From: a virus
Length of the DNA: 64,000 bases
Virus record (IMG/VR): IMGVR_UViG_3300043449_002688
Span: 1 to 64,000 of that record
Direction: 5' to 3' (one strand)
Shown here: positions 1,786 to 51,602 of the stretch, piece after piece
How positions within the stretch are numbered: the first letter of the stretch is position 1
Layout of the letters: the number at the start of each line of letters is the position of its first letter
Notes under the pieces: model-generated
Told to the model about the DNA's origin: nothing
Databases searched by the model: none
The model's input: the letters and a program-made list of their open reading frames with translations, nothing else
Translations under genes and position numbers: made by a program

Positions 1786-2511
1786 TTATTTTAACCTATT
1801 AGACATAGGTGCTTTTGTATTTTTTTGTTTTTGGGGCTTTGGTTTTTGAGGCTTTGGTTTTTGAGGTTTTGACTTTTTTGCTTTTTCATCATATGGATTA
1901 GGCTTAATAAGCATAGTAGTCGGCATAGATTCCGCAATTCTTGGAACCGCGATATGATCAATTATACCCCATTTAATAGCCTCATTTGGTTCTAAATACC
2001 AATCTGCATTTCGCATATCTTTCATTTTATTTTTAATTTTAGCTAATGGAATATTTGTATCTTTTGCAAAATTTACATATACCATTTCATTTAATCTTTC
2101 GAAAGATTTAGCATTTTCTGAAATATCTGCAGCTTTTCCATAAGAGACCCAAGAAGCTTCGTGGACCATCATTTGTGTGCTTGGTGCCGCAAAACGCATG
2201 CCTTTTGTTCCTGCTGCAAGCAAAAGAACGCCACATGACATAGCCATACCTAAAGCTATCGTGGCTACAGGCTTATGGGAAGATTTAATAATATCTCTCA
2301 TGGCGAGTAAAGAATGAGCATCTCCACCATAGCTATGAATATAAATAGGAATTACTGGAATTGCAGGATTTGCTTCCATATATTTAAATTGCGACAAAAA
2401 TGAAGCGGTAGTAGTATCTGTAAATTCAGATACCCAAATATAATCTTGACCTACCAAAGGTGGTAAATAAGAGTAGGCTCCTGGTTTTGCTAGTTTATTT
2501 TCTTGATTCAT
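1786..2511 (-). CDS. ClpP-like serine protease (241 aa)
   Basis: A ClpP/crotonase-fold serine protease (peptidase family S14). The catalytic triad is in the expected order: Ser92 in GMAMSCG, His117 in MMVHEAS, and Asp170 just before the WYLEPNEA segment, matching the position of the ClpP aspartate. The GGDAHS segment near residue 63 matches the oxyanion/substrate-binding loop. In phages such proteins often act as head maturation proteases, but a separate prohead protease is encoded at 18,724, so a role in degrading host or phage proteins is equally possible. The C-terminus is a lysine/proline tail with KPQKP repeats, absent from normal ClpP. The start has GGAGG and overlaps the previous stop as ATGA. 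A second ClpP paralogue lies at 3054-4106. Confidence 0.85.
   Translation of the reverse strand: MNQENKLAKPGAYSYLPPLVGQDYIWVSEFTDTTTASFLSQFKYMEANPAIPVIPIYIHSYGGDAHSLLAMRDIIKSSHKPVATIALGMAMSCGVLLLAAGTKGMRFAAPSTQMMVHEASWVSYGKAADISENAKSFERLNEMVYVNFAKDTNIPLAKIKNKMKDMRNADWYLEPNEAIKWGIIDHIAVPRIAESMPTTMLIKPNPYDEKAKKSKPQKPKPQKPKPQKQKNTKAPMSNRLK
1835..1864 (-). repeat. Tandem 15-bp repeat encoding KPQKP units
   Basis: Two perfect tandem copies of a 15-base unit (plus strand GGCTTTGGTTTTTGA), flanked by degenerate partial copies, encode the lysine/proline tail of the ClpP-like protease. This is probably slippage-driven expansion of a disordered tail. Confidence 0.8.
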
Positions 2512-2798
2512 GATTCCTCCGCTATTACTTCAACTGATTGATTATTTAACTTATGCTCTGAAACAATAATTTTTTCATATCCGCCATGCTTTCCGCAAAG
2601 GGGAGTAGCATAAAACGGCGTTTTTGATGAAATCGATAATGAAGCTGGATGGCCTACTCCACTAACAAAACATTCAATATTACCATTAGTTGACACTGTA
2701 AATCCGCCTATTAGCTGAAAATATTCATCATAAATAGGCCAAGATTTGTTTGCTTCTGCCCATCCTAATTTTAAAGAAAACCTATAGACCCTTCCCAT
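2508..2798 (-). CDS. Hypothetical protein (96 aa)
   Basis: Not recognised. A small protein of 96 residues with aromatic-rich beta-like segments and no membrane segment or signal peptide. The start has AGAGGAAA at normal spacing. Its stop overlaps the start of the ClpP-like gene as ATGA, and its own first codons overlap the end of the upstream membrane-protein gene by 17 bases, so the three are translationally coupled. No function can be assigned. Confidence 0.6.
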   Translation of the reverse strand: MGRVYRFSLKLGWAEANKSWPIYDEYFQLIGGFTVSTNGNIECFVSGVGHPASLSISSKTPFYATPLCGKHGGYEKIIVSEHKLNNQSVEVIAEES

Positions 2799-3039
2799 TT
2801 GTTTCCTCTAAAAATTTTAAAACATTTTCAAGCTTATTTTGTTTTTCTTTATTAATCCAAAAGGCTACAAAAGAAAGAAAAAACACAAATACAGAAAAAG
2901 CCAAAACAGGCTCATTTAAAATTGCCTGAAAAAGCATTATAATAGTTTGCCACATCATAAGATAAAAATTTACGTTTGCAAAAAAACCGTAAAGCTTAAT
3001 TTTTCTTTTAATTTGACTTAAAGGATCAATTTGTTGCAT
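2782..3039 (-). CDS. Small membrane protein with two transmembrane helices (85 aa)
   Basis: An 85-residue protein with two hydrophobic stretches: about residues 20-38 (FANVNFYLMMWQTIIMLFQ) and 46-62 (LAFSVFVFFLSFVAFW). Short charged termini suggest a hairpin in the inner membrane with both ends cytoplasmic. The last 20 residues are a charged helix. It lies directly downstream of the HNH-ClpP fusion gene (14-base gap). Small two-helix membrane proteins in phages include holins, but no lysis gene is adjacent, so I do not call it a holin. Confidence 0.6.
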   Translation of the reverse strand: MQQIDPLSQIKRKIKLYGFFANVNFYLMMWQTIIMLFQAILNEPVLAFSVFVFFLSFVAFWINKEKQNKLENVLKFLEETNGKGL

Positions 3040-3053
3040 TTACTTTCTCTTTA

Positions 3054-4106
3054 TTAAAGAACTTTTGTAATAACCATGTCATCTTCTTCGCCTAAGACTT
3101 TATCTGCTAGCCCTAATTTAACGGCTTCTTGAGCTGTATAAACCGTATCTTTAGAGCATTCTTTTTCCCAAAAAGAAGAATCTTTTTTAGATTTTTTAGA
3201 ATAAATATCGTACATCATTTGCCTTGCTCTTTTAGATTCTTTACTCCAAGATTCTAAAGATTTTGGTTGTCCATCAAATTCTTGCGTTCCATCGTGAATT
3301 AAAAACCTGCAATTAGCAGTCAACTGTCGTTGATCTCCAGCTTGAAAAATAATAGTTGCCGTTGAAGCTACCATTCCTGTTCCAATCATAATTTTAGGAC
3401 AATGACTATTAACTAAAGCATCATAAAAAGCCAATCCGCTGTAAAAGTCTCCGCCGTTTGACATTATTTTAACTGTTACAGGAGCAAATGGGTTAATTTT
3501 CTCCATTAGCTCTAGCCCTTTTAAATAATTAGACGCTGATTCCTCAGTAATTTCATTAAACATAAATATGGTTCTACCTTCAACGTCATATCCATTATGA
3601 AAAATTTGTTCAATCCTTAAGTTCCTAGACTCTTTAATAGAAGACAAAGCGTTAATTGTTTCTATTACAGACAATTTGTCTCCTCTTATAGAGCTACAAG
3701 TTGAACAACATGGAACCACATTATCTATACTATACCCTATTTTTTTATCTAATGAAAGTCTGTCTAATCCTACGCCAGACAAAGGTAAGTTCCCACCACA
3801 ATAAAAACATGGTTTACTGTTTAATTTGATATAATCTTCTTTAGAAAGATTCCATCTTATTTTTCTTAGTTTTGATTCAGTTTTACCTTTATTATATCTA
3901 TCATTAACTGTATAAATTCTATTTTTTTGATAAAGCTTTATAGTCTCTAAAGTTTGAGGATTAGTTTCTTTTTTATAGCAATTTACGCATTTTGGCCCTT
4001 GATATTTAACATTTTTTATTGTTTTACAAGAAATACATTCTTTAGGGCTTAAAGGTTTTGTTTCTACCGTAGAAATAACACTTGGTTTTTCTTTGGTTTT
4101 TGACAT
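3054..4106 (-). CDS. HNH endonuclease module fused to a ClpP-like protease (350 aa)
   Basis: Residues 1-20 look like a short native leader. Residues about 21-160 are an HNH homing-endonuclease-type module: paired cysteines (C23/C26, C40/C43, C100/C103), the GLDRLSLD signature around residue 115, and NVVPCCSTCSS at 129-139. Residues about 165-350 are a complete ClpP-like domain with Ser248 in GMVAS, His271 in FLIHDGT and Asp320 before TVYTAQEA. The frame is continuous, so the HNH part is either an in-frame fusion or an element removed after translation, though no intein termini are seen. The start at 4106 is chosen because AAGGA lies 7 bases upstream; a longer in-frame start at 4145 lies inside the upstream exonuclease gene. 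A second ClpP paralogue lies at 1786-2511; ClpP-like subunits can form mixed rings. Confidence 0.8.
   Translation of the reverse strand: MSKTKEKPSVISTVETKPLSPKECISCKTIKNVKYQGPKCVNCYKKETNPQTLETIKLYQKNRIYTVNDRYNKGKTESKLRKIRWNLSKEDYIKLNSKPCFYCGGNLPLSGVGLDRLSLDKKIGYSIDNVVPCCSTCSSIRGDKLSVIETINALSSIKESRNLRIEQIFHNGYDVEGRTIFMFNEITEESASNYLKGLELMEKINPFAPVTVKIMSNGGDFYSGLAFYDALVNSHCPKIMIGTGMVASTATIIFQAGDQRQLTANCRFLIHDGTQEFDGQPKSLESWSKESKRARQMMYDIYSKKSKKDSSFWEKECSKDTVYTAQEAVKLGLADKVLGEEDDMVITKVL
3627..4046 (-). mobile_element. HNH module inserted at the N-terminus of the ClpP-like gene
   Basis: This segment encodes the HNH module of the fusion described at 3054-4106 (about residues 21-160). Its cysteine pairs, DR motif and CCxxC motif match phage HNH homing endonucleases, which are normally free-standing or carried in introns. 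The boundaries are approximate and set by where ClpP similarity begins. Confidence 0.55.
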
Positions 4107-4108
4107 AA

Positions 4109-4687
4109 TTAAATCCTTATTGCCTTTTCTAAAACCTGAATGCATACAAGAGTGTCATATTTTGCGCCATGAAGCTTGGTTTGGTCTACGTTAACCCCAA
4201 GCCAATTTGCTATTGCTCCAAGACTTAAACTCTGCTCTCTTGGTATTTTACCTTGATTTTTTGCCTTTTTCAATATTTCTCTGGTATCTAATCTATCAGA
4301 TTGAAATACGTATTTATTCCAAACTGTTTTTGGAATTAAATTTAATGTAATAAATTCTTCATCAAAAGGAATATTTTGACCAATTAAGGTTAGTTTTTTA
4401 TTTCCATTTTGGGTATGTTTTTCTAATTTTTGAAATAAAAGTTTTGCTGCTTCAGCAGGAGTAATAGCTGTTTTTTGAAGTTCTTTTAGGTTTATTTTGT
4501 TAATATTTAATGCCTCTTGCGTTACTCTATATCCTACTGGATCAGTTAAAGCAAGATCTAATTCATCTATTATTTTAAATTTATCTTCGCTTACTTTAAC
4601 ACAAAAAGCAAAATAAGCTGTCAGCAAAGAATTATTTACTGGGCTTAATCCGCCAGTTTCGGTATCAAAGGCAAGATAGATTTCCAT
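4109..4687 (-). CDS. DnaQ-like 3'-5' exonuclease (192 aa)
   Basis: A DEDD-family 3'-5' exonuclease (DnaQ/RNase T fold). Exo I is FDTETGG near residues 7-13 (Asp8, Glu10), Exo II is GQNIPFDEEF with its conserved Asp, and Exo III is HGAKYDT, the DEDDh pattern. Because the phage polymerase at 45,988-50,841 is of the DnaE type, which has no proofreading domain, this protein could act as its epsilon-like proofreader; that is inferred, as the two genes are 41 kb apart on opposite strands. An RNase T-like or general DNA-trimming role is an alternative. The start at 4687 is the only one that keeps Exo I, although its ribosome binding site is poor. Confidence 0.88.
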   Translation of the reverse strand: MEIYLAFDTETGGLSPVNNSLLTAYFAFCVKVSEDKFKIIDELDLALTDPVGYRVTQEALNINKINLKELQKTAITPAEAAKLLFQKLEKHTQNGNKKLTLIGQNIPFDEEFITLNLIPKTVWNKYVFQSDRLDTREILKKAKNQGKIPREQSLSLGAIANWLGVNVDQTKLHGAKYDTLVCIQVLEKAIRI

Positions 4688-6210: not shown

Positions 6211-6855
6211 TTAAGGCAATTTTTTGCGTTTATTTAAAGCAGAATTTTGTTCTAGCCTATATTTTTTACCAGTATATATTTCATATAAGCTTTCAGAAAT
6301 TATATCTTTTTTGCTTAATTCAAGTACGTTTTCTGCAAGCATTTTTTTCCATTTATTAAGAATTTTTAAACTTTCTTTTTCTGGTACATTATGGACTTCT
6401 ATTTCAAAGAAAGTTTTTGCAGCAACTTTATATTGAGATTTGGGTACAGTTATTACATACCACACGATAGAAATCTCAGCTTTACCGTCTTGAATAAAAT
6501 ATATATCGCAGTCTTTGTATATAGAAAAAGAATGATTAAACCCCATTAAATTTAAGGCACGTTCTACTTCTGTTACTGGCATATCTTCTGTAATTTTAAT
6601 GTTTGCTTCATGCCGAACGGTAGTAGATTTATTAGATAGCCTTGCTTTTATTGTGATTTCGTTTAAATCAGAGCCTTGCCTATGTCTTGCCACTCTGCCA
6701 GAGTCAGATTCATAATAGTAATCAAAGCCATAAGCATGTTTTCCTTCAGCCTTATAGCTATGTTTTGAAAGAAATTCTGTTACTTTTTTATTATAAGCAG
6801 CCCTAGAAAGACTGCTTGCATCCCATTTAATTTCTATTTCTTTCAGTTTAGCCAT
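6211..6855 (-). CDS. CYTH-domain phosphohydrolase/cyclase-like protein (214 aa)
   Basis: Residues 6-10 read EIEIK, the ExExK signature that defines the CYTH superfamily (CyaB adenylyl cyclase, thiamine triphosphatase, inorganic polyphosphatase). Further alternating charged strands expected for the triphosphate tunnel follow: RVARHR, EITIKARL, EANIKI and FEIEVH. Members bind a triphosphate with divalent metal inside a beta tunnel. The substrate cannot be told from sequence; hydrolysis of a triphosphate or a nucleotide signal is plausible. The gene has its own TAGG site and lies between dUTPase and a small acidic protein on the minus strand. Confidence 0.82.
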   Translation of the reverse strand: MAKLKEIEIKWDASSLSRAAYNKKVTEFLSKHSYKAEGKHAYGFDYYYESDSGRVARHRQGSDLNEITIKARLSNKSTTVRHEANIKITEDMPVTEVERALNLMGFNHSFSIYKDCDIYFIQDGKAEISIVWYVITVPKSQYKVAAKTFFEIEVHNVPEKESLKILNKWKKMLAENVLELSKKDIISESLYEIYTGKKYRLEQNSALNKRKKLP

Positions 6856-6869
6856 TTTATACCTATTAG

Positions 6870-7208
6870 TTAAGATACAACTGGATTTTCTGTAGGTTCC
6901 ATTACATTTTCTGTAACTGGCTCAGTTGAAACTTCCATATTTAAAAATGCCTCAATTTGGTCCAAAGGTGCATTTCTTAAGCGTCTAACAGTTCTTCGTA
7001 ATGGATTCATTGCTACTGGAATATCTATTTCTTCAAAAACAACTTGTCCGTCTTCTACTTTAACTTGATCATTTTCAAAAACAGGTCTTTTAATTTTTTT
7101 ACCAGAAGGAGTATATTTAATCTCATCTTCAACTCCCATAGCTTTTAATTTGTTAGCGAGAAGTTTAGACAAAGTTTTTTTATCTTTTTTAGACAATCCG
7201 TTATTCAT
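6870..7208 (-). CDS. Hypothetical acidic-tailed protein (112 aa)
   Basis: Not recognised. The N-terminal 35 residues are a basic helix (LSKKDKKTLSKLLANKLK), the middle contains two short beta-like segments, and the C-terminal 20 residues are acidic and threonine/proline-rich, probably disordered. AGGAGG precedes the start. It is the first gene of the minus-strand run containing the CYTH and dUTPase genes and follows a divergent promoter region. Confidence 0.55.
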   Translation of the reverse strand: MNNGLSKKDKKTLSKLLANKLKAMGVEDEIKYTPSGKKIKRPVFENDQVKVEDGQVVFEEIDIPVAMNPLRRTVRRLRNAPLDQIEAFLNMEVSTEPVTENVMEPTENPVVS

Positions 7209-7233
7209 TTAAGCCTCCTGTTGGTATAAATTA

Positions 7234-7261
7234 AGAATATCTCAAAACGATATATTTGCAA
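7234..7261 (-). promoter_or_regulatory. Possible sigma70-type promoter for the CYTH/dUTPase run
   Basis: On the minus strand TTGCAA is followed after 16 bases by TATTCT, ending 26 bases before the ATG at 7208. The match to consensus is moderate. It overlaps a divergent plus-strand promoter region. Confidence 0.35.
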
Positions 7262-7268
7262 TAATTAA

Positions 7269-7297
7269 TTGCTTTTTGTAAAAAATACAAATATACT
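7269..7297 (+). promoter_or_regulatory. Sigma70-type promoter for the 89-aa gene
   Basis: TTGCTT, a 17-base spacer and TATACT (five of six to the -10 consensus) lie about 30 bases upstream of the ATG at 7327, with AAGGAG in between. The spacing and -10 match make a host-type promoter likely. Confidence 0.55.
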
Positions 7298-7326
7298 AAT
7301 TTTGTACCTTAACAAAAGGAGTAAAT

Positions 7327-7596
7327 ATGAAAAAGCAAAAAGCAGTAAGCCAAATTATCGATCAAGTTTTGGAAAATGGTCGTTGCCTTGTTAAGCTTAA
7401 TCCTAAAAATCAAAAAATGGTACGTCAATTGGCAGAAGATTGTGTTGGTAGTAGTGTTATTCGCGCTGTACCTTGGGGATGCGGCAACGAAAAATACATT
7501 CTTTTTGCTGATATTAATCCAGTCGCAGTACAAACAACAGGTGAAGTAATTTTTGTTGATTTTAAAGCTAAAAAAGTCTTGAAAAGAGTGTCTTAA
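7327..7596 (+). CDS. Hypothetical protein (89 aa)
   Basis: Not recognised. A small basic protein beginning with a helix (KKQKAVSQIIDQVLENG) followed by a beta-like second half. It is one of only three short plus-strand genes in the otherwise minus-strand left half, and has its own promoter-like sequence (TTGCTT, 17, TATACT) and strong AAGGAG site, which suggests early, host-polymerase-driven expression. Small early phage proteins of this kind often bind host proteins, but nothing here shows that. Confidence 0.6.
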   Translation: MKKQKAVSQIIDQVLENGRCLVKLNPKNQKMVRQLAEDCVGSSVIRAVPWGCGNEKYILFADINPVAVQTTGEVIFVDFKAKKVLKRVS

Positions 7597-29512: not shown

Positions 29513-30539
29513 ATAAACCTCCATACATGTCGCCAAATTTCATTAATACAATCTTTTTTTCTAAAACAGTTAATTGATTAAAAACGCTTAACATTTTAAT
29601 ATTAATTTGTAAATTCTCTACTTTGTCGTGAACAGATTCAGACGTATCTATAAATTTTTCAACAAAAGAGTGTTGTCCGTCAATTTTTTCATCAATACTG
29701 ACACCTTGATTTGCTGCAGCTTCAATTCTTTCAATATCAGAAGATGTAACGCCGCCGAATGATTGAGATACATAATCAACAACTTCTTCTTTAGAAATAG
29801 ACATTTTTGTTTCTTTGGCTTTTTTAGTTCTATATAAAATTCTTTTTTCTTTTGGAGGCAATTTTACCAAAGTTTGACTATTGTTTTCTTGCATTTCAAG
29901 AGTCATTTTTCCTATTGAGACTCCGTTAAATTCTCTATTATTTGTTATTCTTCCTTTTGCCGGAACAAATTTATCAACCGCAATCAATAGTCCTTCTGCT
30001 GCATTTTGAATTAAATCCATGTAATCTAAATATGGATTAGAAGTATTTCTCCAAAATAAATTAGCTCTATTGATTGCTAAAGGTAAATTTTTTTCACATA
30101 TTGCTTTTCTTATATCTTCCATTTTATTTAAGATTTTTGTTAAGGCACTTTTTTTTCTTCCTGTGTATTTTTCCAAAGCCCAAACACAAAATTTATAATT
30201 TATTTTAAATACTTGTAATTTTTTATAATTTTTTTGATGAAAAGCTGTGTACATTTTTTTAGAAAAGGTATCTTGCCTTTCTCTAAAATATACTCTAGCC
30301 GACAGCATATTTCCTTTGCCATCTTCATCATCTAAAATAAAATGCATAAACTGTTCATATATTTTGTTTCCATGAGGAGTATCTAATAGCGTTTTTTTAA
30401 ATGTTTTTTCTAAACTAATCAACTCATTAATGTATTGTTTTGTTTGTTTAGATTCTTTATTTTCTTTTTCTCTTAACATTACATTCATTTCTTCAACAAA
30501 AGAAATAAATAATATATCTGATTTGATATTCTTCCTCAT
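29505..30539 (-). CDS. Sigma-70-like factor lacking the region 4.2 HTH (344 aa)
   Basis: Residues about 145-195 match sigma region 2: NLPLAINRANLFW, then NPYLDYMDLIQNAAEGLLIAVDKF, the core-binding and -10-recognising segment. Residues about 210-230 (SIGKMTLEMQEN) may be region 2.4/3. The C-terminus LTVLEKKIVLMKFGDMYG looks like the start of region 4.1, but the protein stops seven residues later, before any helix-turn-helix, so -35 recognition is not expected. T4 gp55, the late sigma factor, is likewise built without region 4 and reads only a -10 element. AGGAG gives a firm start, overlapping the helicase stop as ATGA. No frameshifted HTH follows, because the GroES gene begins there. Confidence 0.72.
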   Translation of the reverse strand: MRKNIKSDILFISFVEEMNVMLREKENKESKQTKQYINELISLEKTFKKTLLDTPHGNKIYEQFMHFILDDEDGKGNMLSARVYFRERQDTFSKKMYTAFHQKNYKKLQVFKINYKFCVWALEKYTGRKKSALTKILNKMEDIRKAICEKNLPLAINRANLFWRNTSNPYLDYMDLIQNAAEGLLIAVDKFVPAKGRITNNREFNGVSIGKMTLEMQENNSQTLVKLPPKEKRILYRTKKAKETKMSISKEEVVDYVSQSFGGVTSSDIERIEAAANQGVSIDEKIDGQHSFVEKFIDTSESVHDKVENLQINIKMLSVFNQLTVLEKKIVLMKFGDMYGGLCE

Positions 30540-33088
30540 CCTATCTCCTGAACTTCACCAAGCTGATTGTAAATAGCCATTCGAGCATTACAATGCCTTT
30601 CCATTGATGGAGAACCTTCGACTTTAAAATCAAAAATAAAAGCATCTTTTTTATTATCTGTAACTCTAGTAGCTCTGCCTATTCCTTGTTTAACTTGAAT
30701 TTCCGATGTTCCGCCTTGCAAGTAAATTAAAGCCCCAGTAGGTTGAAGGTCTACTCCAGTAGAAATAGCAGAAGTTCCGATAATAAGTTTGGTTTCGCCT
30801 TTATTAAATCGTTCTACAATTGCTTCAGTGTCTGATTTCCAGTATTCTTTAGGAACAATATCTTTTAAGTTAGTTCCATCGGCATTTTGTCTGTTTGATA
30901 TTCCGCCGTGAGCAAATTCAAAAGGAACAGTAATATAATTTTTTAATTGCATAAACTGAGCGAATTCATCTATCAAAATAACTGTTTGTCTGTTTAGCAA
31001 ATTAACGCATTTATGTGCAATTTCTCCAGCCAACTTATTGACGTTTGGATTTAAATAAAGTTGTTGTCTTGTTTCTTTATTAATATCATTTGCTCCAGAA
31101 AACCCATGCGATTGAACTTTAAATATTTTAAAAAAAGGTCTAGAAAGATATCCTTTTTCTACTAATTCTTTAAAATCTTTTCTGTAAACTGTAGGACCTG
31201 TAATGCCTTTTAAAATCATTTCAGAGCCATCGGTTCTAATTTGTGTAGCAGATACAAAAAAACGATAATAACAATCTTTTAAGAGATTCATTACAACTTT
31301 TTCAAAAGTCTCTGCTGGGGTAGTATGACAATTATGTGCTACGATTCCTGTAGCGCCCGATGAAACTATAAAATTATGATTATCTTCAACTTCTATATCG
31401 TAAAGGTTAGATAAATATTTTTTTCTTTTTGGCAAATTAAATGAAAATTTTTCAACAGATACTACTTGTGAGTATCCATATTTACTTTTTTCAGGAATCC
31501 ATTTGTATGTTCCAACAAGATTTTGAAATCTTTTTGAAATTTTATAAGAAAGAGAAGGGTGTATATAATTTGATATCTTTTTGCTTAAAAGATTGTAACC
31601 TTCTTTGCTAAAAAGAATATACTTGTATCCTTTATTGACAGCAACTCGACATTCAATTCCTTTATTTTTAAACCAAGTGACAATAATTTCTTGAGATTGA
31701 TCGTCAAAAGATGATGTATGTAATTCGCCTCTATTGTCGCCATTTCCGTATCCATCATCCATAAACCATACGGCTAGCCCTTTATCATTTACATTTTCTA
31801 AAAATTCTTTTGTTATTTGTTTTTTTCTTTTTTCAAAAGGCAATTTTGAATAAAAAAGTTTTGTAGAAAAACGGTAAGCTGGTTTTTTTGCATATCCATT
31901 TTTTTCAATAAATTCTATATTTTTGATTCCTAAAAGATTTGCTCCCCATTTTAAGTAATTTAATTGTTTTGCAGAATGAATAACTCTCATTCTTATTCCA
32001 TTTTTATGAATAGAAATTGAACCGTCTCCCAAATAACTGCCTAAGATATATTGTTCTGAATCGCCTAAATATTCTGGAGAAAATGAACTTTTTTTATCAT
32101 TAACATTTCCTAGTATAAAATGTTTTTTTGTAAGATCCCCAGCTTTTACCCAACCTAAATTTGTTAATATTTTATGATCAGAAGTGCAAGAAAAGGTGGA
32201 ATTTGAACACCTTACTTTTACCATATTATCTTTTTTTTCTCTTTTCCACGTATTAGTTATTGTTTTATATTCAAATTTTTTTTCTATTTCGTTAAAAGAT
32301 AAAACTTTAGGAAGAGGTTTGCCTTTAATAAAATTATTATGCAATGTGCTTATTCTTATTGGGCCTTTTTCTGTTGCTATTTTTGTATCATAAGGAAAGC
32401 ATTCGTCCCATATTAAAACGTCTGTTTTGGTTAAATTATTCCATTGCTCTGAACCTTCTTCAACTCTTACTAAAGCTTGAGCTGTAGCAACAGTAAACAA
32501 TTTGTCTATCTCTTTTTTACCATCACCATACTTACCAATATATTTTTTACCAAAAAGTTTAATAAATTCTTTGTAAAGTTGATCTGTAATTGAGGCAGAT
32601 GGCGTAGCAATTATTGTTTTAAGGCCTAATCTTTTACAGAGTTCATAAATTATCCGACTTTTGCCTGAACCTGTAGGCAATTCAATTGCTCCATGACGCG
32701 CTTTTATAAGCTCTTCAACTGCTTCGCTTTGATAATCTCTTAAGAGTTTAGGTTGAGATGCCCAAGGAATTAGTTTACCTTCATCCAATTTATTTAAATT
32801 ATTGGTTAAATCCCAGTGAAATCTATTTTGTAAATCTTTATAAAGACCAGAATAAGTATATGGGTTGCCGGAATCATCATAAAACAACAAACATTTTTGC
32901 ATTTCAGACTTAAGTTGATCAAGCCTTTGATTAAAGCTATCTGGATCTGAATTTGCCCAACGATAATTTTGTTTTAATTTTTTAATTTGATAATCAACGC
33001 CGCGATCTCTAAATGTAAGAAAATTTTTTACTTCTTCTGAATCAGAAGGAAGATAAATCTTTGAAAAATCCATAAAAGACAATTTCAT
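30536..33088 (-). CDS. uvsW: UvsW-like superfamily 2 helicase with an intein (850 aa precursor)
   Basis: An SF2 DNA helicase interrupted by an intein. N-extein residues 1-229 hold the Q/motif I region: RDYQSEAVEELIKA, then ELPTGSGKS (136-144, Walker A) and ATPSASITDQ (motif Ia). The DEAH-box aspartate-glutamate (228-229) is followed by the intein (230-586) and then by CHTTP, so splicing restores DECH. After it come SATQIR (motif III), IGTSAISTGVDLQP (motif V) and QGIGRATR (motif VI). The mature enzyme would be 493 residues, close to T4 UvsW, which acts in branch migration and origin R-loop unwinding. The start at 33,088 is next to the divergent region; its GGGG site is only 1-2 bases from the ATG. 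Confidence 0.9.
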   Translation of the reverse strand: MKLSFMDFSKIYLPSDSEEVKNFLTFRDRGVDYQIKKLKQNYRWANSDPDSFNQRLDQLKSEMQKCLLFYDDSGNPYTYSGLYKDLQNRFHWDLTNNLNKLDEGKLIPWASQPKLLRDYQSEAVEELIKARHGAIELPTGSGKSRIIYELCKRLGLKTIIATPSASITDQLYKEFIKLFGKKYIGKYGDGKKEIDKLFTVATAQALVRVEEGSEQWNNLTKTDVLIWDECFPYDTKIATEKGPIRISTLHNNFIKGKPLPKVLSFNEIEKKFEYKTITNTWKREKKDNMVKVRCSNSTFSCTSDHKILTNLGWVKAGDLTKKHFILGNVNDKKSSFSPEYLGDSEQYILGSYLGDGSISIHKNGIRMRVIHSAKQLNYLKWGANLLGIKNIEFIEKNGYAKKPAYRFSTKLFYSKLPFEKRKKQITKEFLENVNDKGLAVWFMDDGYGNGDNRGELHTSSFDDQSQEIIVTWFKNKGIECRVAVNKGYKYILFSKEGYNLLSKKISNYIHPSLSYKISKRFQNLVGTYKWIPEKSKYGYSQVVSVEKFSFNLPKRKKYLSNLYDIEVEDNHNFIVSSGATGIVAHNCHTTPAETFEKVVMNLLKDCYYRFFVSATQIRTDGSEMILKGITGPTVYRKDFKELVEKGYLSRPFFKIFKVQSHGFSGANDINKETRQQLYLNPNVNKLAGEIAHKCVNLLNRQTVILIDEFAQFMQLKNYITVPFEFAHGGISNRQNADGTNLKDIVPKEYWKSDTEAIVERFNKGETKLIIGTSAISTGVDLQPTGALIYLQGGTSEIQVKQGIGRATRVTDNKKDAFIFDFKVEGSPSMERHCNARMAIYNQLGEVQEIG
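31331..32401 (-). mobile_element. LAGLIDADG intein in the helicase DEAH box (357 aa)
   Basis: The element spans precursor residues 230-586. It begins with Cys1 (CFPYDTKI, block A), has CTSDHKILT as block B (301-309), two LAGLIDADG-type motifs (ILGSYLGDG near 348 and LAVWFMDDG near 438), YDIEVEDNHNF as block F and GIVAHN followed by Cys as block G. All residues needed for splicing (Cys1, block B His, penultimate His, terminal Asn, Cys+1) are present. The endonuclease motifs keep their acidic residues, so homing may be active. The insertion point is inside the essential helicase motif II. Confidence 0.93.
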
Positions 33089-45404: not shown

Positions 45405-45781
45405 AACTATGGTTTGCTTCAAATGAAAACATACATACAATTGAAGTTGTCTTTCAAATAGAAACAACAAAGGCAGATTTACAGCATGTTCAATATGAAG
45501 CAAATAAAGCTGTTGAAAAACAAAAATCTATTACTGCTGCAATTCAAGTTTTAAAAAGAAATTTAAAATTTTTAAAAACCGAAGCAGAAATAGTAAGTAT
45601 TAATCAGTATAAAAAAACCATATATCAACTTTCTGGCCTTTATCAAGAACAACTTAGTATTTTGTATGATATCTCGGAATATAAAAAAGAAATTAATTTT
45701 TTGTTAGAAAAAATTCAAATGCTAGAATTTAAAAAAGAACAGGTTAAATTCAGGCTTTTGGAGTTTAAAAAAAATGAATAA
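45401..45781 (+). CDS. Hypothetical coiled-coil protein (126 aa)
   Basis: Not recognised. After a beta-like N-terminus (MKLWFASNENIHTIEVVF) nearly the whole protein is helical and charged, with heptad-like spacing in residues 30-120. The start overlaps the previous stop as ATGA and its stop overlaps the next gene by 8 bases. It may be an oligomeric partner of the neighbouring zinc-ribbon protein. Confidence 0.55.
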   Translation: MKLWFASNENIHTIEVVFQIETTKADLQHVQYEANKAVEKQKSITAAIQVLKRNLKFLKTEAEIVSINQYKKTIYQLSGLYQEQLSILYDISEYKKEINFLLEKIQMLEFKKEQVKFRLLEFKKNE

Positions 45782-46001
45782 AATTGAACTTATTGAAAAA
45801 ATCAAAAATGATGACGATTTTATTAATTTGTTAAAATATAACAACAGTTTAAAAAACCTATTATCTGAACATCCCACAGGAGTATCTGATTCAGTTATAT
45901 GCAAAGCGCTTTGTATATCTCAAGCCGAGCTTGACGAAGCCCTTAGATCTGCTATAATGAAATTCAAAGAAAGTGTTGGGATTACCGATGACGAAATTTA
46001 A
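45774..46001 (+). CDS. Small helical protein, possible HTH (75 aa)
   Basis: Residues 35-60 read HPTGVSDSVICKALCISQAELDE, which resembles a helix-turn-helix used by small DNA-binding proteins. The rest is acidic and helical. Its ATG is 10 bases after GGAG and its 3' end overlaps the dnaE start by 14 bases, suggesting coupling with the polymerase. A regulatory function is possible but not shown. Confidence 0.5.
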   Translation: MNKIELIEKIKNDDDFINLLKYNNSLKNLLSEHPTGVSDSVICKALCISQAELDEALRSAIMKFKESVGITDDEI

Positions 46002-48090
46002 ACAGCTAATCAATCCTCATTCTCATTCAGATTACAGTTTAGACGGTGCAGCAACAGTTTCTCAAATAGTTGAAAGAAATAAACAACTTGGCGCTTCATA
46101 TGTAACCTTAACAGAACATGGAAACATGAATTCTGCTATGGAGTTATATAAGACAGCAAAGCAAAAAGGCATTACCCCCATTCTTGGGATGGAAGCTTAT
46201 CTAATCAACCCTTGGCACAATGAATATGTAGAAATTTATCGAAAAGCTATTTCTTCTGGAGTATTGCAAATAAGAGAAAAAAACCCAGAAGCTATTGAAA
46301 ATGCCATTCAAAAAAAGGCAATGAATCATTATTTACATATTACTGTCCATTTTAAGGACGCTTGGGCTTATCAATATTTTTGTAAAATTTCCCCAAAAAT
46401 GTGGTCTCGTTCTATTAAAAAATACAGCGAAGAAAAACCATTGATTACAATGGAAGAATTAGAAGCCGCCGCAGGCCATATTACTATTGGCTCTAGCTGT
46501 ATGAAGGGTCCAGTTCAATACTTTATGTTGCCATCAAAAGATGGACTGATCCCTCCTCAGCCAGAAAAATCAAAATACATGTATGAATGGCTGAAAAGAA
46601 TTGCAGGAAAAGAAAGTTTTTTCGTAGAAGTTTTTCCTCATCAAGTTACACATGAATGGCAAAAACCAGAAAAAGATTATTCTGGTCGAATCATTAAAGA
46701 AGGCTATTTTAAAGCCCACGAATGCACCTGTCATGCTCCAAACGGAGATTACCAAAAACCTCTTAATGAGTGGGTTATACATTTAGCAGAATCAAACAAG
46801 GATAAGGCCATTATTTCTTTAGATTCTCATTATGCGACAAAAAATCAAAAAGTTATCCAAGATGCAAGGCTTGGAAATGGCGATGAAAATTGGAGATTTT
46901 ATAATTATTATCACATAATGTCCACAGAAGAAGCCGCTGAAGTTTTAAGAAAAACGCTTGGCATTAATGATAGAAAAATTGAAGAATGGGTTGAAAACTC
47001 ATATGATTGGGCTTCAAATTTTGATTCTTTTAAGCTAGAAACTTCTGAAACACGATGGATTTTAGCTGGAGATTCAGACCGATTTATGAATAGGTTAAAA
47101 TCAACTATTGATAAATGGGGAAGGATGGATTGGTCAAATCAAGAAATGGTTGACCGACTTAAACATGAAATTCAAGTTTTAGCTCATAATAAAAAGCTTA
47201 ACCTTTTGGCTTACTTTGAAACGATAGAAGATGTTGCTAATTTTTGCAGAGAAAATGGCGTATTAATGAACGTTCGAGGCTCTGCAGGCGGGTCACTATT
47301 GCTTTATTTAATTGGGGTTAGCGGCATTAACCCAATGAAACATGACCTTTCTTTTGGACGATTTTTGACTGAAGGAAGAATTGAAGCAAATACTCTTCCT
47401 GATGTTGATATGGACGTTTCAGATCAAGAAAAAGTTATTGAATACTTAAAAAGTAAGTATGGAGATGGCATTTGCAGGCTCTCAACTGATTTATTGCTTC
47501 GAATTAAATCTTCAATTAAAGATGCAGAAAGATCTATATTAGGTAAGGTCAGAAAAGAAACTGAAGATCTTTGTAAAAAACTGCCCTCTACTCCACAAGG
47601 AACCGAAGATATTGCATTTATTTTTGGGTTTAATGACAAAAATACTGGCGAACATATTCCTGGCATTTTTGATAAAAATTTTGCATTACAAAAATATGCA
47701 GAGGATAATGCTGAGATTTGGAATGTAGTAAAAGAAATGCTTGGAATCCAACGCAATAAAAGTTCGCATGCTTGTTACGTTGGCGAAACCCTAATCTTAA
47801 TTTACGAAGACAACCAAGTAAAAGAAAAAAGGATAGATGCATGCGACGGAAAAACAGTATTTACAGGCCAAGGCTCGATAGCCAAAGCAAAATTAATAAA
47901 CCAGGGGAAGAAAAAAGTAAAAAAATACACACTAGAGAACGGAAAAACTTTAGTTGTAACTCCAGATCATTTGATGTTAACGAAAAAAGGCTGGATGACA
48001 ATAGAGCAAGTTTTTCAAGAGGGAGAGGGCCTAATATCACTATCGAAGACTGTAGACGGGCTGCTGAAGAAAGAAAAGGAAAGTGTTTAA
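45988..48090 (+). CDS. dnaE: DNA polymerase III alpha (DnaE), N-terminal part fused to a split-intein N half (700 aa)
   Basis: The N-terminal 595 residues are family C polymerase. The PHP domain starts at once (NPHSHSDYSLDG, residues 9-20; then TEHGNMN and GMEAYL). The polymerase core begins near residue 415 with RGSAGGS, and PDVDMDVSD carries two catalytic aspartates. At residue 596 the sequence SSHA is interrupted by Cys and an intein N half, so this ORF alone is not a functional polymerase. The C-terminal part is encoded at 48,886-50,841 behind a matching intein C half. The start at 45,988 has TTGGGA 7-8 bases upstream; a GTG five codons earlier is rejected. The PHP metal ligands look intact, so PHP-type proofreading is possible. 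Confidence 0.92.
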   Translation: MTKFKQLINPHSHSDYSLDGAATVSQIVERNKQLGASYVTLTEHGNMNSAMELYKTAKQKGITPILGMEAYLINPWHNEYVEIYRKAISSGVLQIREKNPEAIENAIQKKAMNHYLHITVHFKDAWAYQYFCKISPKMWSRSIKKYSEEKPLITMEELEAAAGHITIGSSCMKGPVQYFMLPSKDGLIPPQPEKSKYMYEWLKRIAGKESFFVEVFPHQVTHEWQKPEKDYSGRIIKEGYFKAHECTCHAPNGDYQKPLNEWVIHLAESNKDKAIISLDSHYATKNQKVIQDARLGNGDENWRFYNYYHIMSTEEAAEVLRKTLGINDRKIEEWVENSYDWASNFDSFKLETSETRWILAGDSDRFMNRLKSTIDKWGRMDWSNQEMVDRLKHEIQVLAHNKKLNLLAYFETIEDVANFCRENGVLMNVRGSAGGSLLLYLIGVSGINPMKHDLSFGRFLTEGRIEANTLPDVDMDVSDQEKVIEYLKSKYGDGICRLSTDLLLRIKSSIKDAERSILGKVRKETEDLCKKLPSTPQGTEDIAFIFGFNDKNTGEHIPGIFDKNFALQKYAEDNAEIWNVVKEMLGIQRNKSSHACYVGETLILIYEDNQVKEKRIDACDGKTVFTGQGSIAKAKLINQGKKKVKKYTLENGKTLVVTPDHLMLTKKGWMTIEQVFQEGEGLISLSKTVDGLLKKEKESV
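47773..48087 (+). mobile_element. Split intein N-terminal half (IntN, 105 aa)
   Basis: It starts with Cys1 (CYVGETLILI, block A), and has TPDHLMLT as block B (Thr-x-x-His). It follows the extein sequence NKSSHA. It ends at the ORF stop with no HEN domain in the same frame. Complementary block F and G sequences are on the IntC ORF 800 bases downstream. The last 18 or so residues overlap the endonuclease coding region. Confidence 0.9.
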
Positions 48091-48920
48091 GCGAGGAATA
48101 TAAAGGATTAAAATACCCACTTAAATGGCAATGTGATCATGGGCATTTATGGATATCAAATTTTCATAATATAAAATATTCAAAAACTTGGTGTCCATCT
48201 TGTTTTAAAAATAAAACTCGCCATAGGTTAACTTTTAGTTTTGAAAAAGTTAAAACAATTTGTTTATCAAAAGGATTTGAAATCATTTCTAAGGAATATA
48301 AAAATAGCTTAGAACAAATTGAAGTCAAACATATACCTTGCCAAACATCTTTTAAAACTACCTTTCATAATATTACGCATAAAAAAGTTTGTCCAGAATG
48401 CTCTTTAAGAAAAAGAGCCGATATAATAGAAGCTGAAAATTTAGTTAAAGTAAAAGAAGGAAAAATAATAGGTTTTGCTAAAAAATCTAAAAATAATTCA
48501 ACATGGGAATGCGCTAAAGGCCATCAATGGAGAACCACTTGGAGTAATATTAAAAAAGGTTCTTGGTGTCCTTTTTGTGCAGGTAAAAAAAGTATTTCTT
48601 CAATACATAAACAAGCTGTTGCTAAATTATATCAACATAAAAGATGGGATGCTGAAAAAGGATATCAGACTACAATCGAATTAGAAGATATCGTAAATGC
48701 ATTAAAGTCTAAATGTGTTTATTGTGACAATAATGCTACCAATGTAGATCGTAAAAACTCAAATTTAGGGCATTTAAAAGAAAATTGTGTTCCATGTTGT
48801 GGAAGATGTAATAGAGTCAAAAATAATTGTATTTCTTATGAAACCATGCTAAAAATAGGCAAGATATTAAAAGAAGAGGAACAAAATGAAGATAATAAAA
48901 GCGGAGGAGCTGGGTTATGA
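47841..48920 (+). CDS. Free-standing homing endonuclease between the split dnaE halves (359 aa)
   Basis: This frame lies in the -1 frame relative to dnaE and the intein halves. The protein (from ATG 47,841) has three zinc-finger-like repeats of the type CxxGHxWxxxxxNIkxxxxWCPxC at about residues 98-121, 167-187 and 224-246. These are followed by an HNH-like domain at 292-327 (CVYCDNN, VDRKNS, NCVPCCGRCNRVKNN). Such repeats are typical of phage homing endonucleases. AAAGGA lies 7 bases before the ATG, so the first 83 residues overlap the IntN gene and have no clear domain. Recognised similarity begins near 48,036. The gene would spread the fractured dnaE allele by cutting intein-less copies. 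Its end overlaps the IntC ORF by 35 bases. Confidence 0.8.
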   Translation: MRRKNSIYRPRLDSQSKINKPGEEKSKKIHTRERKNFSCNSRSFDVNEKRLDDNRASFSRGRGPNITIEDCRRAAEERKGKCLSEEYKGLKYPLKWQCDHGHLWISNFHNIKYSKTWCPSCFKNKTRHRLTFSFEKVKTICLSKGFEIISKEYKNSLEQIEVKHIPCQTSFKTTFHNITHKKVCPECSLRKRADIIEAENLVKVKEGKIIGFAKKSKNNSTWECAKGHQWRTTWSNIKKGSWCPFCAGKKSISSIHKQAVAKLYQHKRWDAEKGYQTTIELEDIVNALKSKCVYCDNNATNVDRKNSNLGHLKENCVPCCGRCNRVKNNCISYETMLKIGKILKEEEQNEDNKSGGAGL

Positions 48921-48993
48921 GCAAGTTTATGACTTATCAGTTTTTCACGAAGATCACAGTTTTGTTCTTGAAACTGGCAATGTAACGCACAAT
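48886..48993 (+). mobile_element. Split intein C-terminal half (IntC, 36 aa)
   Basis: Thirty-six residues beginning MKIIKAEELGYEQVYDL. Block F is VYDLSVFHEDHSFVLE and block G is GNVTHN, followed by Cys+1 of CGFIICDKPV. Length, sequence and penultimate His plus terminal Asn match known split inteins of DnaE (for example cyanobacterial IntC of about 36 residues). Confidence 0.92.
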
Positions 48994-50841
48994 TGCGGAT
49001 TTATTATTTGCGATAAGCCAGTAACTGACTATATGCCTGTTATTAAAATAAATAACGAATGGGTCACAGGCTTTTCTCCAAAGTCAGTTGAAGCAGCAGG
49101 CGGCGTTAAATTTGACTTATTGGGCCTTAATACATTAAGAGACATTCAAATTTGCCTGGATTCTATTAGAAAACGAACAAATGAGAATCTAGATCCATGG
49201 AATTTGCCTTATGACGAAAAAGTTTGGGATATTTTTATAAAAGGCGATGTTGATGGAGTTTTTCAATTTGATACACCAACAATTCGTCCATATGTCATAA
49301 AAACAAAGCCAAAGACCATTGATGAACTTGCTGCGCTAACGGCTCTTGGCAGACCTGGAACGCTAGATGCCCCTGCAGGAGACTCTACGGCAAGGACATT
49401 AGCAGAGCTTTATGTTGACAGAGCAAACGGCGAACCTGTTCAGTATTTGCATTCTGATCTTGAACCTATTTTAAAGCAAACTTATGGAATTCAATTGTTT
49501 CAAGAACAAACAATTAAAATTTTTACATCAATAGGCGGAATGTCTGATGCAGAAGCCGATGAGGTTCGTAGAGGTATAGGCAAAAAGAATAAAGCAGTTC
49601 TTGATATAGCTGCAGAAAAACTTAAGATTGCCTGCTTAAAAAGAGGATGGACCGAAGAACAAGTTGCCGTATTAATTCAACAAATTGAAGCATCTGCTAA
49701 CTATTCTTTTAACAAATCACATGCAGTTTCATATGCTTATGTAGCTTACGCTTGCATGTATTTAAAAACAAAATACAAGCTTGATTGGTGGAAAGCCATT
49801 CTTTCTAATGCTACAAAAGATGAACTTGCTACTAAATTTTGGAAAAACGTACAAGAATTTACCACACTTCCAGATATTAATATTTCTACAGATGATTATG
49901 AAATAGTTGAAAACAAAATCGTAGCGCCTTTTTCAATCCTTAGCGGTGGGGTTGGTGAAAAAGCTTATGAAAGTTTAATGAAAAATAAACCTTATAAAAA
50001 TCTTGAGCACTTTGTTTCTTGTCATTTTCCTACAAAAGAAGAAGAAGATCGCAAGAAAGCCTTGAAAAAGAATGGTATTGATTTAGAAAAAAATGTAAGA
50101 AAATCAGCAGTAACTGCAGCTATAGCTAGAAAATTAATTGCTGGGGGCGTTTTAGATTCATTATTCGAGCCAAATATGTTAATTGAAGAAAAATTGTTTC
50201 AATTTGAACAAGTTAGAGGTCAAATTAAAGGCAAAAAGCCAGAAAAAGTGCCAGATGAATATGTTGGAGTATCTACTTTAGGTAAATACTTATTAAGAAA
50301 AGAGCTTATTCAAATCCATTCTGACGATTTAAGAGAAATAATGCTCCCTAGCCGACATGGTAAAAAACTACCTTGCAGAATTGGAAATGAATATGAGTCT
50401 TGGTTTTCTCAAGATGGGGTAATTGTACTTGATGGAAATCAAATACAATGGTTTAGAAAATACTTTGATTTAGGCGTTTCTATAGAAACTTTAGTTCAAA
50501 AATTTGACAGTCTACTTCAAAATAAAGACCCTTATCAAATTTCTGTTCCTAGTCAAATAGGACACAATGAAAGGTATTTCCAGGCAATAGGTTATGTTGT
50601 AGGCGAAAAAGCTTTTCCTTACAAAAATAAAACCAAACAAGCAACTAGATTAGTTATTGATTTTAATGGATATTTTACTGAAGAAATGATGTGGCCAGAG
50701 CAAGACGAAGACCAAGCGGAAATGGGCTTTAAAAGCCTTCCCGTATTGGCAATATTTGGATTAAATAAAAAAGGAATTTATTTAAAAAAGGTTTTAAAAC
50801 TCTTGAGCGAAACTGACTTAGAAAAGTACAACATGACTTGA
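48886..50841 (+). CDS. dnaE: DnaE C-terminal part behind the intein C half (651 aa)
   Basis: Residues 1-36 are IntC; residues 37-651 are the C-terminal 615 residues of the DNA polymerase III alpha subunit. Extein sequence CGFIICDKPVTDYMPV continues exactly where the first ORF breaks (SSHA). It contains KFDLLGLNTLRDI, TALGRPGTLDAPAGDS-like palm/fingers motifs, YGIQLFQEQTIKI, RRGIGKKNKA and SANYSFNKSHAVSYA, then the beta-flap tail. Trans-splicing with the N ORF would give a polymerase of about 1,210 residues. The start ATG overlaps the endonuclease end; a GGAG site is not seen close by, so coupling with the upstream gene is likely. Confidence 0.92.
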   Translation: MKIIKAEELGYEQVYDLSVFHEDHSFVLETGNVTHNCGFIICDKPVTDYMPVIKINNEWVTGFSPKSVEAAGGVKFDLLGLNTLRDIQICLDSIRKRTNENLDPWNLPYDEKVWDIFIKGDVDGVFQFDTPTIRPYVIKTKPKTIDELAALTALGRPGTLDAPAGDSTARTLAELYVDRANGEPVQYLHSDLEPILKQTYGIQLFQEQTIKIFTSIGGMSDAEADEVRRGIGKKNKAVLDIAAEKLKIACLKRGWTEEQVAVLIQQIEASANYSFNKSHAVSYAYVAYACMYLKTKYKLDWWKAILSNATKDELATKFWKNVQEFTTLPDINISTDDYEIVENKIVAPFSILSGGVGEKAYESLMKNKPYKNLEHFVSCHFPTKEEEDRKKALKKNGIDLEKNVRKSAVTAAIARKLIAGGVLDSLFEPNMLIEEKLFQFEQVRGQIKGKKPEKVPDEYVGVSTLGKYLLRKELIQIHSDDLREIMLPSRHGKKLPCRIGNEYESWFSQDGVIVLDGNQIQWFRKYFDLGVSIETLVQKFDSLLQNKDPYQISVPSQIGHNERYFQAIGYVVGEKAFPYKNKTKQATRLVIDFNGYFTEEMMWPEQDEDQAEMGFKSLPVLAIFGLNKKGIYLKKVLKLLSETDLEKYNMT

Positions 50842-50882
50842 TAATTTACATTTAATATATTAAAATTAATTTAGGAGTAAAT

Positions 50883-51602
50883 ATGAATAAACTTAAAGAA
50901 ATGCTTAATGAAATCAAAGAACAAAAAGCTATGTTGGCCGTTAACCCAGAAGATGTAGACCCTCGCATTCGAAACACTTTTGAAGGCGAATTGCGCAATG
51001 CAACAGAACGCTTAAAAGAATTAGAAGAAGCTTATAAAAATGCTGTTATGGAACATACTGTAGTTATTGTCGTTAAAGGCTCTGAAGCAGAAGAATTTGC
51101 TTCTGTAGCAAAAGAAGCGGCTGTAGCTTTAGATTATAAATTCATTTTAAGTGACATTGTAACGGCTCTTAGAGAAAGAAATGCTCCAGAACCATACGAT
51201 ACAAATACTCATTTTTTGTTATTGGATGAATTAAATAAAATTAAACTAAAGTATAATATGGTAAGATTGCCAATTCCGCAAGTAAATGGATACAATGACA
51301 ATGTTTATGGCTCAGATCTTTATACTGCAATCGATATTTTATTTGAAAAAAATTATGGAGAAGGACTGTATTCTGCCGTTGTACGCAGAGAAATTGGAAA
51401 AATTGCTTTAAGCGGTGAATTTCAAGGCAAAAAACTGCCAGTGTTTTTATACAATCATTCCGGTAAAGTTGATGTAAATTTTTTACCAATTCCAGTTAGT
51501 GTTATTGAAATTAATGAAAAGATGGACAAAGAAAAAGTTTTAGGTAAAATTAAAGAACTAAGAAGCGTTATTAATGGAAACAAAAAAGAAGGCCAAGAAT
51601 AA
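50883..51602 (+). CDS. Hypothetical protein (239 aa)
   Basis: Not recognised. Residues 1-60 are a helical hairpin or coiled coil (KLKEMLNEIKEQKAMLA, RLKELEEAYKNAV); residues 60-239 are a mixed alpha/beta domain with VVIVVKGSEAEEFASVAKEA and FLLLDELNKIKL. It lies between the polymerase and SSB genes with an AGGAG site, in a replication context. Confidence 0.6.
   Translation: MNKLKEMLNEIKEQKAMLAVNPEDVDPRIRNTFEGELRNATERLKELEEAYKNAVMEHTVVIVVKGSEAEEFASVAKEAAVALDYKFILSDIVTALRERNAPEPYDTNTHFLLLDELNKIKLKYNMVRLPIPQVNGYNDNVYGSDLYTAIDILFEKNYGEGLYSAVVRREIGKIALSGEFQGKKLPVFLYNHSGKVDVNFLPIPVSVIEINEKMDKEKVLGKIKELRSVINGNKKEGQE

What the first reader, a model, noticed from the sequence alone, without database searches (positions are those of the whole stretch)
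45988..50841. Fractured dnaE: polymerase split by a split intein with a homing endonuclease gene between the halves
The first ORF ends 105 residues after SSHA with an intein N half (CYVGETL..., TPDHLMLT). The second starts with a 36-residue intein C half (block F VYDLSVFHEDHSFV, GNVTHN then Cys) and resumes DnaE exactly at CGFIICDKPV. A third ORF with zinc-finger repeats and an HNH domain lies between them. The essential replicative polymerase therefore depends on protein trans-splicing. 'Fractured gene' arrangements with split inteins and free-standing endonucleases are known from environmental data, but this combination in a phage dnaE, with an HNH enzyme bearing three zinc repeats, looks unusual. 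Splicing residues (Cys1, block B His, His-Asn, Cys+1) are all present.
Basis: partly seen in the sequence, partly recalled or inferred. Interest (0 to 1): 0.88.

Follow-up and report, generated by a model that had tools for sequence, protein, structure and literature searches.

The report
Phage polymerase gene split by intein
In this phage the gene for the DNA-copying enzyme is cut into two pieces, each carrying half of a self-splicing protein tag (a split intein), with a DNA-cutting 'homing' gene squeezed between them; it is a clean new example of a rare but already known arrangement, in a polymerase type for which I found no earlier phage report.

Summary
A phage DnaE (Pol III alpha) is broken at SSHA|CGFII. 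The first ORF (45988-48090) ends in a 105-residue intein N half; the last (48886-50841) begins with a 36-residue intein C half. A frame-3 ORF between them, overlapping both, encodes three treble-clef repeats (DUF4379) and an HNH nuclease domain. Seven relatives (49-71% identical) and Myxococcus phage Mx1 have uninterrupted DnaE at exactly this codon. One relative (L021) carries a contiguous LAGLIDADG intein at the same site. The break separates the presumed catalytic aspartates, so neither half can be a complete polymerase; trans-splicing is the best explanation but untested. The nuclease is of the PacI-type 'D-R' HNH class. The layout matches 'fractured genes': I re-read a published case (PolB of phage MIJ3) and found more in TerL and NrdJ of viral contigs. 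So it is a new member of a known kind, with a target (DnaE), site and endonuclease that I did not find reported. Open question: how the endonuclease is translated, since no ATG/GTG/TTG lies where its coding signal begins and its only ATG lies deep inside the intein N half.

The parts
45988..47772 (+). dnaE N-extein (PHP domain, NTPase domain, LPDVDMD motif); ends SSHA
47773..48090 (+). IntN, 105 aa (Cys1, block B TPDH) plus stop; the last 18 codons look like read-through into the endonuclease region
   Evidence: TIGR01445 26.8 bits, PDB inteins, codon bias
47841..48920 (+). Homing endonuclease ORF in frame 3 (ORF open from 47772; first ATG 47841; coding-like and homologous part 48033-48917; possible AUC start at 48036 or 48042)
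48069..48587 (+). Three DUF4379-type treble-clef zinc repeats (approximate limits)
   Evidence: (three stretches)
48714..48821 (+). Core of the PacI-type HNH domain (CVYC ... DR ... GH ... N ... CCGRCNRVK)
   Evidence: alignment; PacI profile match E=3.3e-9; Foldseek probability 1.00
48874..48879 (+). Shine-Dalgarno-like AAGAGG before the IntC ATG
   Evidence: -6.0 kcal/mol, top 5% of the region
48886..48993 (+). IntC, 36 aa (block F VYDL, terminal His-Asn)
   Evidence: TIGR01443 21.3 bits
48994..50841 (+). dnaE C-extein, native Cys+1, KFDLLGL motif, finger domain, HHH, plus stop

Best explanation
A split intein of the ordinary Cys1 / His-Asn / Cys+1 type interrupts phage DnaE between Ala and the native Cys of the H-A|C motif. 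The two halves are made from separate, closely packed ORFs. IntN and IntC associate, the intein excises itself, and the exteins are joined into one DnaE of about 1,210 residues. Between the halves sits a homing endonuclease gene (three zinc repeats plus a PacI-type HNH domain). It presumably cuts the empty dnaE junction of related phages in mixed infection, so that the intein-plus-endonuclease cassette is copied in. Shown: anatomy, exact empty site, splicing motifs, domain assignments, recurrence of the layout in other phages. Inferred: trans-splicing activity, cleavage of the empty site, homing.
For: Intein models above cut-off and PDB split-intein matches. Exact empty site in seven relatives and Mx1 with native Cys+1, and a different contiguous intein at the same codon in L021. 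IntC has its own ATG and SD. Codon bias changes frame at the domain boundaries. Catalytic motifs are divided between the halves. HNH domain of PacI type. Same layout in MIJ3 PolB and in TerL and NrdJ of other viral contigs.
Against: No splicing or cleavage data. A single assembly. The endonuclease lacks an ATG/GTG/TTG where its coding signal starts.
Confidence: 0.88

Rival explanations
1. A contiguous intein with an in-frame HNH domain that only looks fractured because of two assembly or sequencing frameshifts (frame 1 to 3 near 48033, frame 3 to 1 near 48886).
For: No ATG/GTG/TTG near the start of the endonuclease coding signal; a contiguous intein exists at this site in L021.
Against: IntC has an ATG exactly at its first strand with a ribosome site. 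Two independent indels exactly at domain borders would be needed. The same three-ORF layout with overlaps recurs in other phages.
Confidence: 0.05
2. A split polymerase whose halves only associate without splicing; the intein is dead.
For: Phage Pol III alpha split into separate proteins is described (PMC7824862), and a recurrent tail-bearing split of DnaE without a recognisable intein occurs in remote relatives.
Against: All splicing residues and motifs are intact, the splice junction is exact, and the +1 Cys is kept.
Confidence: 0.05
3. RNA-level splicing (group I or II intron) removes the insert.
For: Phage pol genes are sometimes interrupted by endonuclease inserts without an intein (KLEB27-3 and JD001).
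Against: No Rfam intron match in 45500-51200 even at E up to 1; both borders carry intein coding sequence.
Confidence: 0.02

Closest known systems
'Fractured genes' (Dassa et al. 2009, NAR 37:2560, doi 10.1093/nar/gkp095; text not held, contents from citations and memory)
   Same: Conserved enzyme gene broken by a split intein with an endonuclease gene between the halves, mainly phage
   Different: DnaE target and PacI-type HNH; as I recall, half of the published set carried Vsr-like endonucleases. Whether DnaE was among their genes could not be checked.
Split PolB of Pseudomonas phage MIJ3 (PMC6892783)
   Same: Replicative polymerase, IntN ORF, HEG ORF, IntC ORF, tightly packed
   Different: Family B polymerase, Ser1 intein, HEG with DUF723 repeats and no detectable similarity to the window's
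Cyanobacterial split DnaE intein (Npu/Ssp DnaE)
   Same: DnaE host protein; nearest solved intein relatives by sequence
   Different: Other insertion site (about residue 774 vs 520 of NF007079); from general knowledge, halves far apart on the chromosome and no endonuclease between
PacI-type HNH nuclease
   Same: CxYC, D-R, G-Y/H, N and CxxCNxxK pattern; fold match
   Different: The window protein adds three zinc repeats and sits in a homing context; PacI is a restriction enzyme
CapR/DUF723/DUF4379-repeat phage homing endonucleases (PMC10448857, PMC12350094)
   Same: N-terminal zinc-repeat targeting module
   Different: Those carry T5orf172 or EDxHD/Vsr nuclease domains

Membership tests
Fractured gene | Conserved enzyme coding region broken in two by IntN and IntC | tested here: met
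Fractured gene | Endonuclease gene between the two halves | tested here: met
   it overlaps both halves
Fractured gene | Intein-less alleles exist at the exact site | tested here: met
Fractured gene | Trans-splicing restores one protein | not testable with these tools
   needs co-expression
Fractured gene | Endonuclease cuts the empty allele | not testable with these tools
   needs a cleavage assay on intein-less dnaE
Canonical Cys1 split intein split at the endonuclease site | Cys1, TxxH in block B, block F, His-Asn end, Cys+1 | tested here: met
   sequence; models; alignments
Canonical Cys1 split intein split at the endonuclease site | IntN about 100 aa and IntC about 40 aa | tested here: met
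   105 and 36 aa; the typical sizes are given in PMC11923092
Cyanobacterial split DnaE intein | Same insertion site in DnaE | tested here: not met
   C-extein starts at 521 of NF007079, whereas other IntN halves align to about 774-855 of that profile
PacI-type HNH nuclease | Conserved D-R, N, CxYC and CxxCNxxK with the PacI fold | tested here: met
PacI-type HNH nuclease | DNA cleavage with a Tyr general base | not testable with these tools
   Y230 is invariant, but its correspondence to the PacI catalytic Tyr was not verified
Group I or II intron | Intron RNA structure | tested here: not met
   no match

The most novel reading that the evidence does not exclude
The endonuclease has no conventional start where its coding signal begins. 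It is made at low level either from a non-AUG (AUC) codon behind a strong ribosome site embedded in the IntN sequence, or by frameshift as a DnaE-N/IntN/endonuclease fusion, so the dose of the selfish nuclease is set by translation of the polymerase half.
Probability: 0.3. Interest if true: 0.58.

Novelty: new member of a known kind. Interest (0 to 1): 0.48.

Why it matters
A replicative polymerase whose two catalytic halves should work only after protein trans-splicing is a clear test of how deeply phages tolerate split inteins, and it offers a new natural split intein whose empty sites are known. One dnaE codon seen in three states (empty, contiguous LAGLIDADG intein, fractured with a PacI-type nuclease) makes the route from intein to split intein testable within one phage clade. 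The TerL series (contiguous L108, split without nuclease L105/L106, split with nuclease L107) does the same.

Tried and rejected
RNA intron: no Rfam match. Same intein in sequenced phages: the joined intein against 50,697 phage records hit only BL3 TerL. KLEB27-3 and JD001 looked like parallels by annotation but show no intein halves. Single-sequence searches for the C-extein and for the endonuclease found nothing; two- and three-sequence alignments worked. Bacterial genomes with the N-extein gave only remote DnaE. 'Broken HNH because D-R replaces D-H' was rejected: PacI and most viral homologues have D-R. A -1 slippery heptamer (A AAA AAA, about 47919) exists, but slipping there would destroy IntN, so it is probably chance.

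Full report
Observation. The window is part of a 154,801-base viral record. Its dnaE lies in two ORFs: 45988-48090 and 48886-50841. Pfam places PHP and the Pol III alpha NTPase domain in the first, and the end of that domain, the finger domain and HHH_6 in the second. The first ORF continues past SSHA for 105 residues that match the intein N-terminal model (26.8 bits, cut-off 24.5); the second opens with 36 residues matching the intein C-terminal model (21.3 bits, cut-off 15.6). Joined, the halves hit solved inteins, Npu-type DnaE and gp41-1, with E down to 5e-7. Cys1, TPDH, VYDL, THN and Cys+1 are all present.

Empty site. Tblastn on viral contigs shows continuous DnaE, with N-extein end and C-extein start on neighbouring codons, in L006, L007, L012, L013, L008, L009 and L011 (49-71% identical in the N part) and, more distantly, in Mx1. 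L010 is uninterrupted up to residue 591 of 594, where its contig ends. The junction HA|C (HP|C in some) with native Cys at +1 is visible. Mx1 also shares the neighbourhood: metallophosphatase, DnaE, SSB, RecA-like, primase. L021 carries a contiguous 329-residue LAGLIDADG-type intein at the identical codon. It is only weakly alike to the split intein, so either the site was invaded more than once or one old intein has diverged greatly.

Why splicing should matter. LPDVDMD is in the N half and KFDLLGL in the C half. From knowledge of E. coli Pol III alpha (D401, D403, D555) these motifs carry the metal-binding aspartates, so neither half alone can be a complete polymerase. This is inference from homology, not an activity test.

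The endonuclease. Three DUF4379 treble-clef stretches and a DUF723 hit are followed by a nuclease domain aligned with 12 other viral ORFs; C228, Y230, N251 and C256 are invariant, and D239, R240 and K263 nearly so. The profile finds PacI at E=3.3e-9. The AlphaFold model is confident only in this domain (pLDDT above 90 over about residues 191-260; overall mean 63.5), and Foldseek's top match is PacI with probability 1.00 but a modest E-value of 1.8e-3. In PacI, Asp and Asn hold the metal and Tyr replaces His as general base (PMC4081073), so D-R here is the norm of the class, not a defect. I did not verify which PacI tyrosine corresponds to Y230. CapR, DUF723 and DUF4379 repeats are known targeting modules of phage homing endonucleases with other nuclease domains (PMC10448857; PMC12350094).

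How the frames fit. Codon log-odds trained on window genes favour frame 1 in IntN up to about 48032 (+0.19), then frame 3 from 48033 (+0.21 over the endonuclease; other frames -0.51 and -0.98). The last 18 codons of IntN look like read-through (-0.41) and the frame-3 stretch after ATG 47841 is not clearly coding-like (-0.17). No ATG, GTG or TTG is available near 48033 in that frame. ATC at 48036 has the best ribosome-site score of the candidate starts (-8.5 kcal/mol, about the top 1% of the region), against -5.4 for ATG 47841 and -6.0 for the IntC ATG. The start of the nuclease is therefore unresolved. The endonuclease (28-29% GC) is AT-richer than IntN and IntC (37%) and DnaE (34-35%); this fits separate acquisition but does not prove it.

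Known or new. The published MIJ3 PolB locus was re-read: the PolB-N/IntN ORF overlaps the start of an endonuclease ORF, which abuts the IntC/PolB-C ORF (PMC6892783). Its endonuclease has DUF723 repeats and no detectable similarity to the window's. A search with three intein N halves found more fractured genes in viral contigs: TerL with HNH_3 (L107, L110, L114), NrdJ (L117), split TerL without a nuclease (L105, L106), and a contiguous mini-intein at what looks like the same TerL site (L108). So the layout is recurrent and known. I found no report of a phage DnaE example in the held literature, but the founding paper (Dassa 2009) is not held. The cyanobacterial split DnaE intein sits elsewhere in the protein (about 774 vs 520 of NF007079).

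Limits. An assembly-frameshift origin is unlikely but not excluded.

Verdict. Confirmed and interesting: a new member of the fractured-gene kind with a new target, a new site and a distinct endonuclease. What remains surprising is the translation start of the nuclease.

Noticed in passing
window 30536-33088 (-): A DEAD/ResIII helicase carries a contiguous LAGLIDADG_2 intein inside its motif II (WDE|C...HN|CHTT); a second intein in the same phage.
   Followed up: partly
L016, L019, L033, L034, L039, L050 (about extein residue 485): Remote relatives have DnaE broken after the first catalytic motif. The N half ends in a conserved tail (VVEVEAEDGTKHVLPEDFRVET.G...WW) and in several the stop overlaps or adjoins the next ATG. 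The tail looks faintly like a degenerate intein N half. Unexplained.
   Followed up: partly
L034 5900-7400, L038/L072 about 6400-7446: LAGLIDADG-type intein at another DnaE site, GRG|SAGG, with Ser+1.
   Followed up: partly
L112 about 3850-4250: Contiguous intein at yet another Pol III site (KGIM|C) in a related phage.
   Followed up: no
L107, L110, L114, L117; L105/L106; L108: Fractured TerL (HNH_3 between the halves) and NrdJ, split TerL without nuclease, and a contiguous mini-intein at apparently the same TerL site: an apparent evolutionary series.
   Followed up: partly
L104 292-2172 (Brochothrix phage BL3 gp2/gp3): The large terminase gene is split by a split intein with no endonuclease between; annotated as a terminase and an unnamed gp3.
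   Followed up: partly
L075 2129-3958: A PacI-type HNH gene sits between two fragments of what looks like a DNA cytosine methylase; no intein halves seen.
   Followed up: no
L003 (KLEB27-3) 3300-4309; L004 (JD001) 2504-3334: Polymerase genes interrupted by endonuclease inserts without inteins, perhaps introns. The JD001 insert is a DUF4379 + GIY-YIG/T5orf172 ORF annotated only in part.
   Followed up: partly
L070 8200-9100: DnaE interrupted after C-extein residue 66 by about 900 bp of unknown nature.
   Followed up: no
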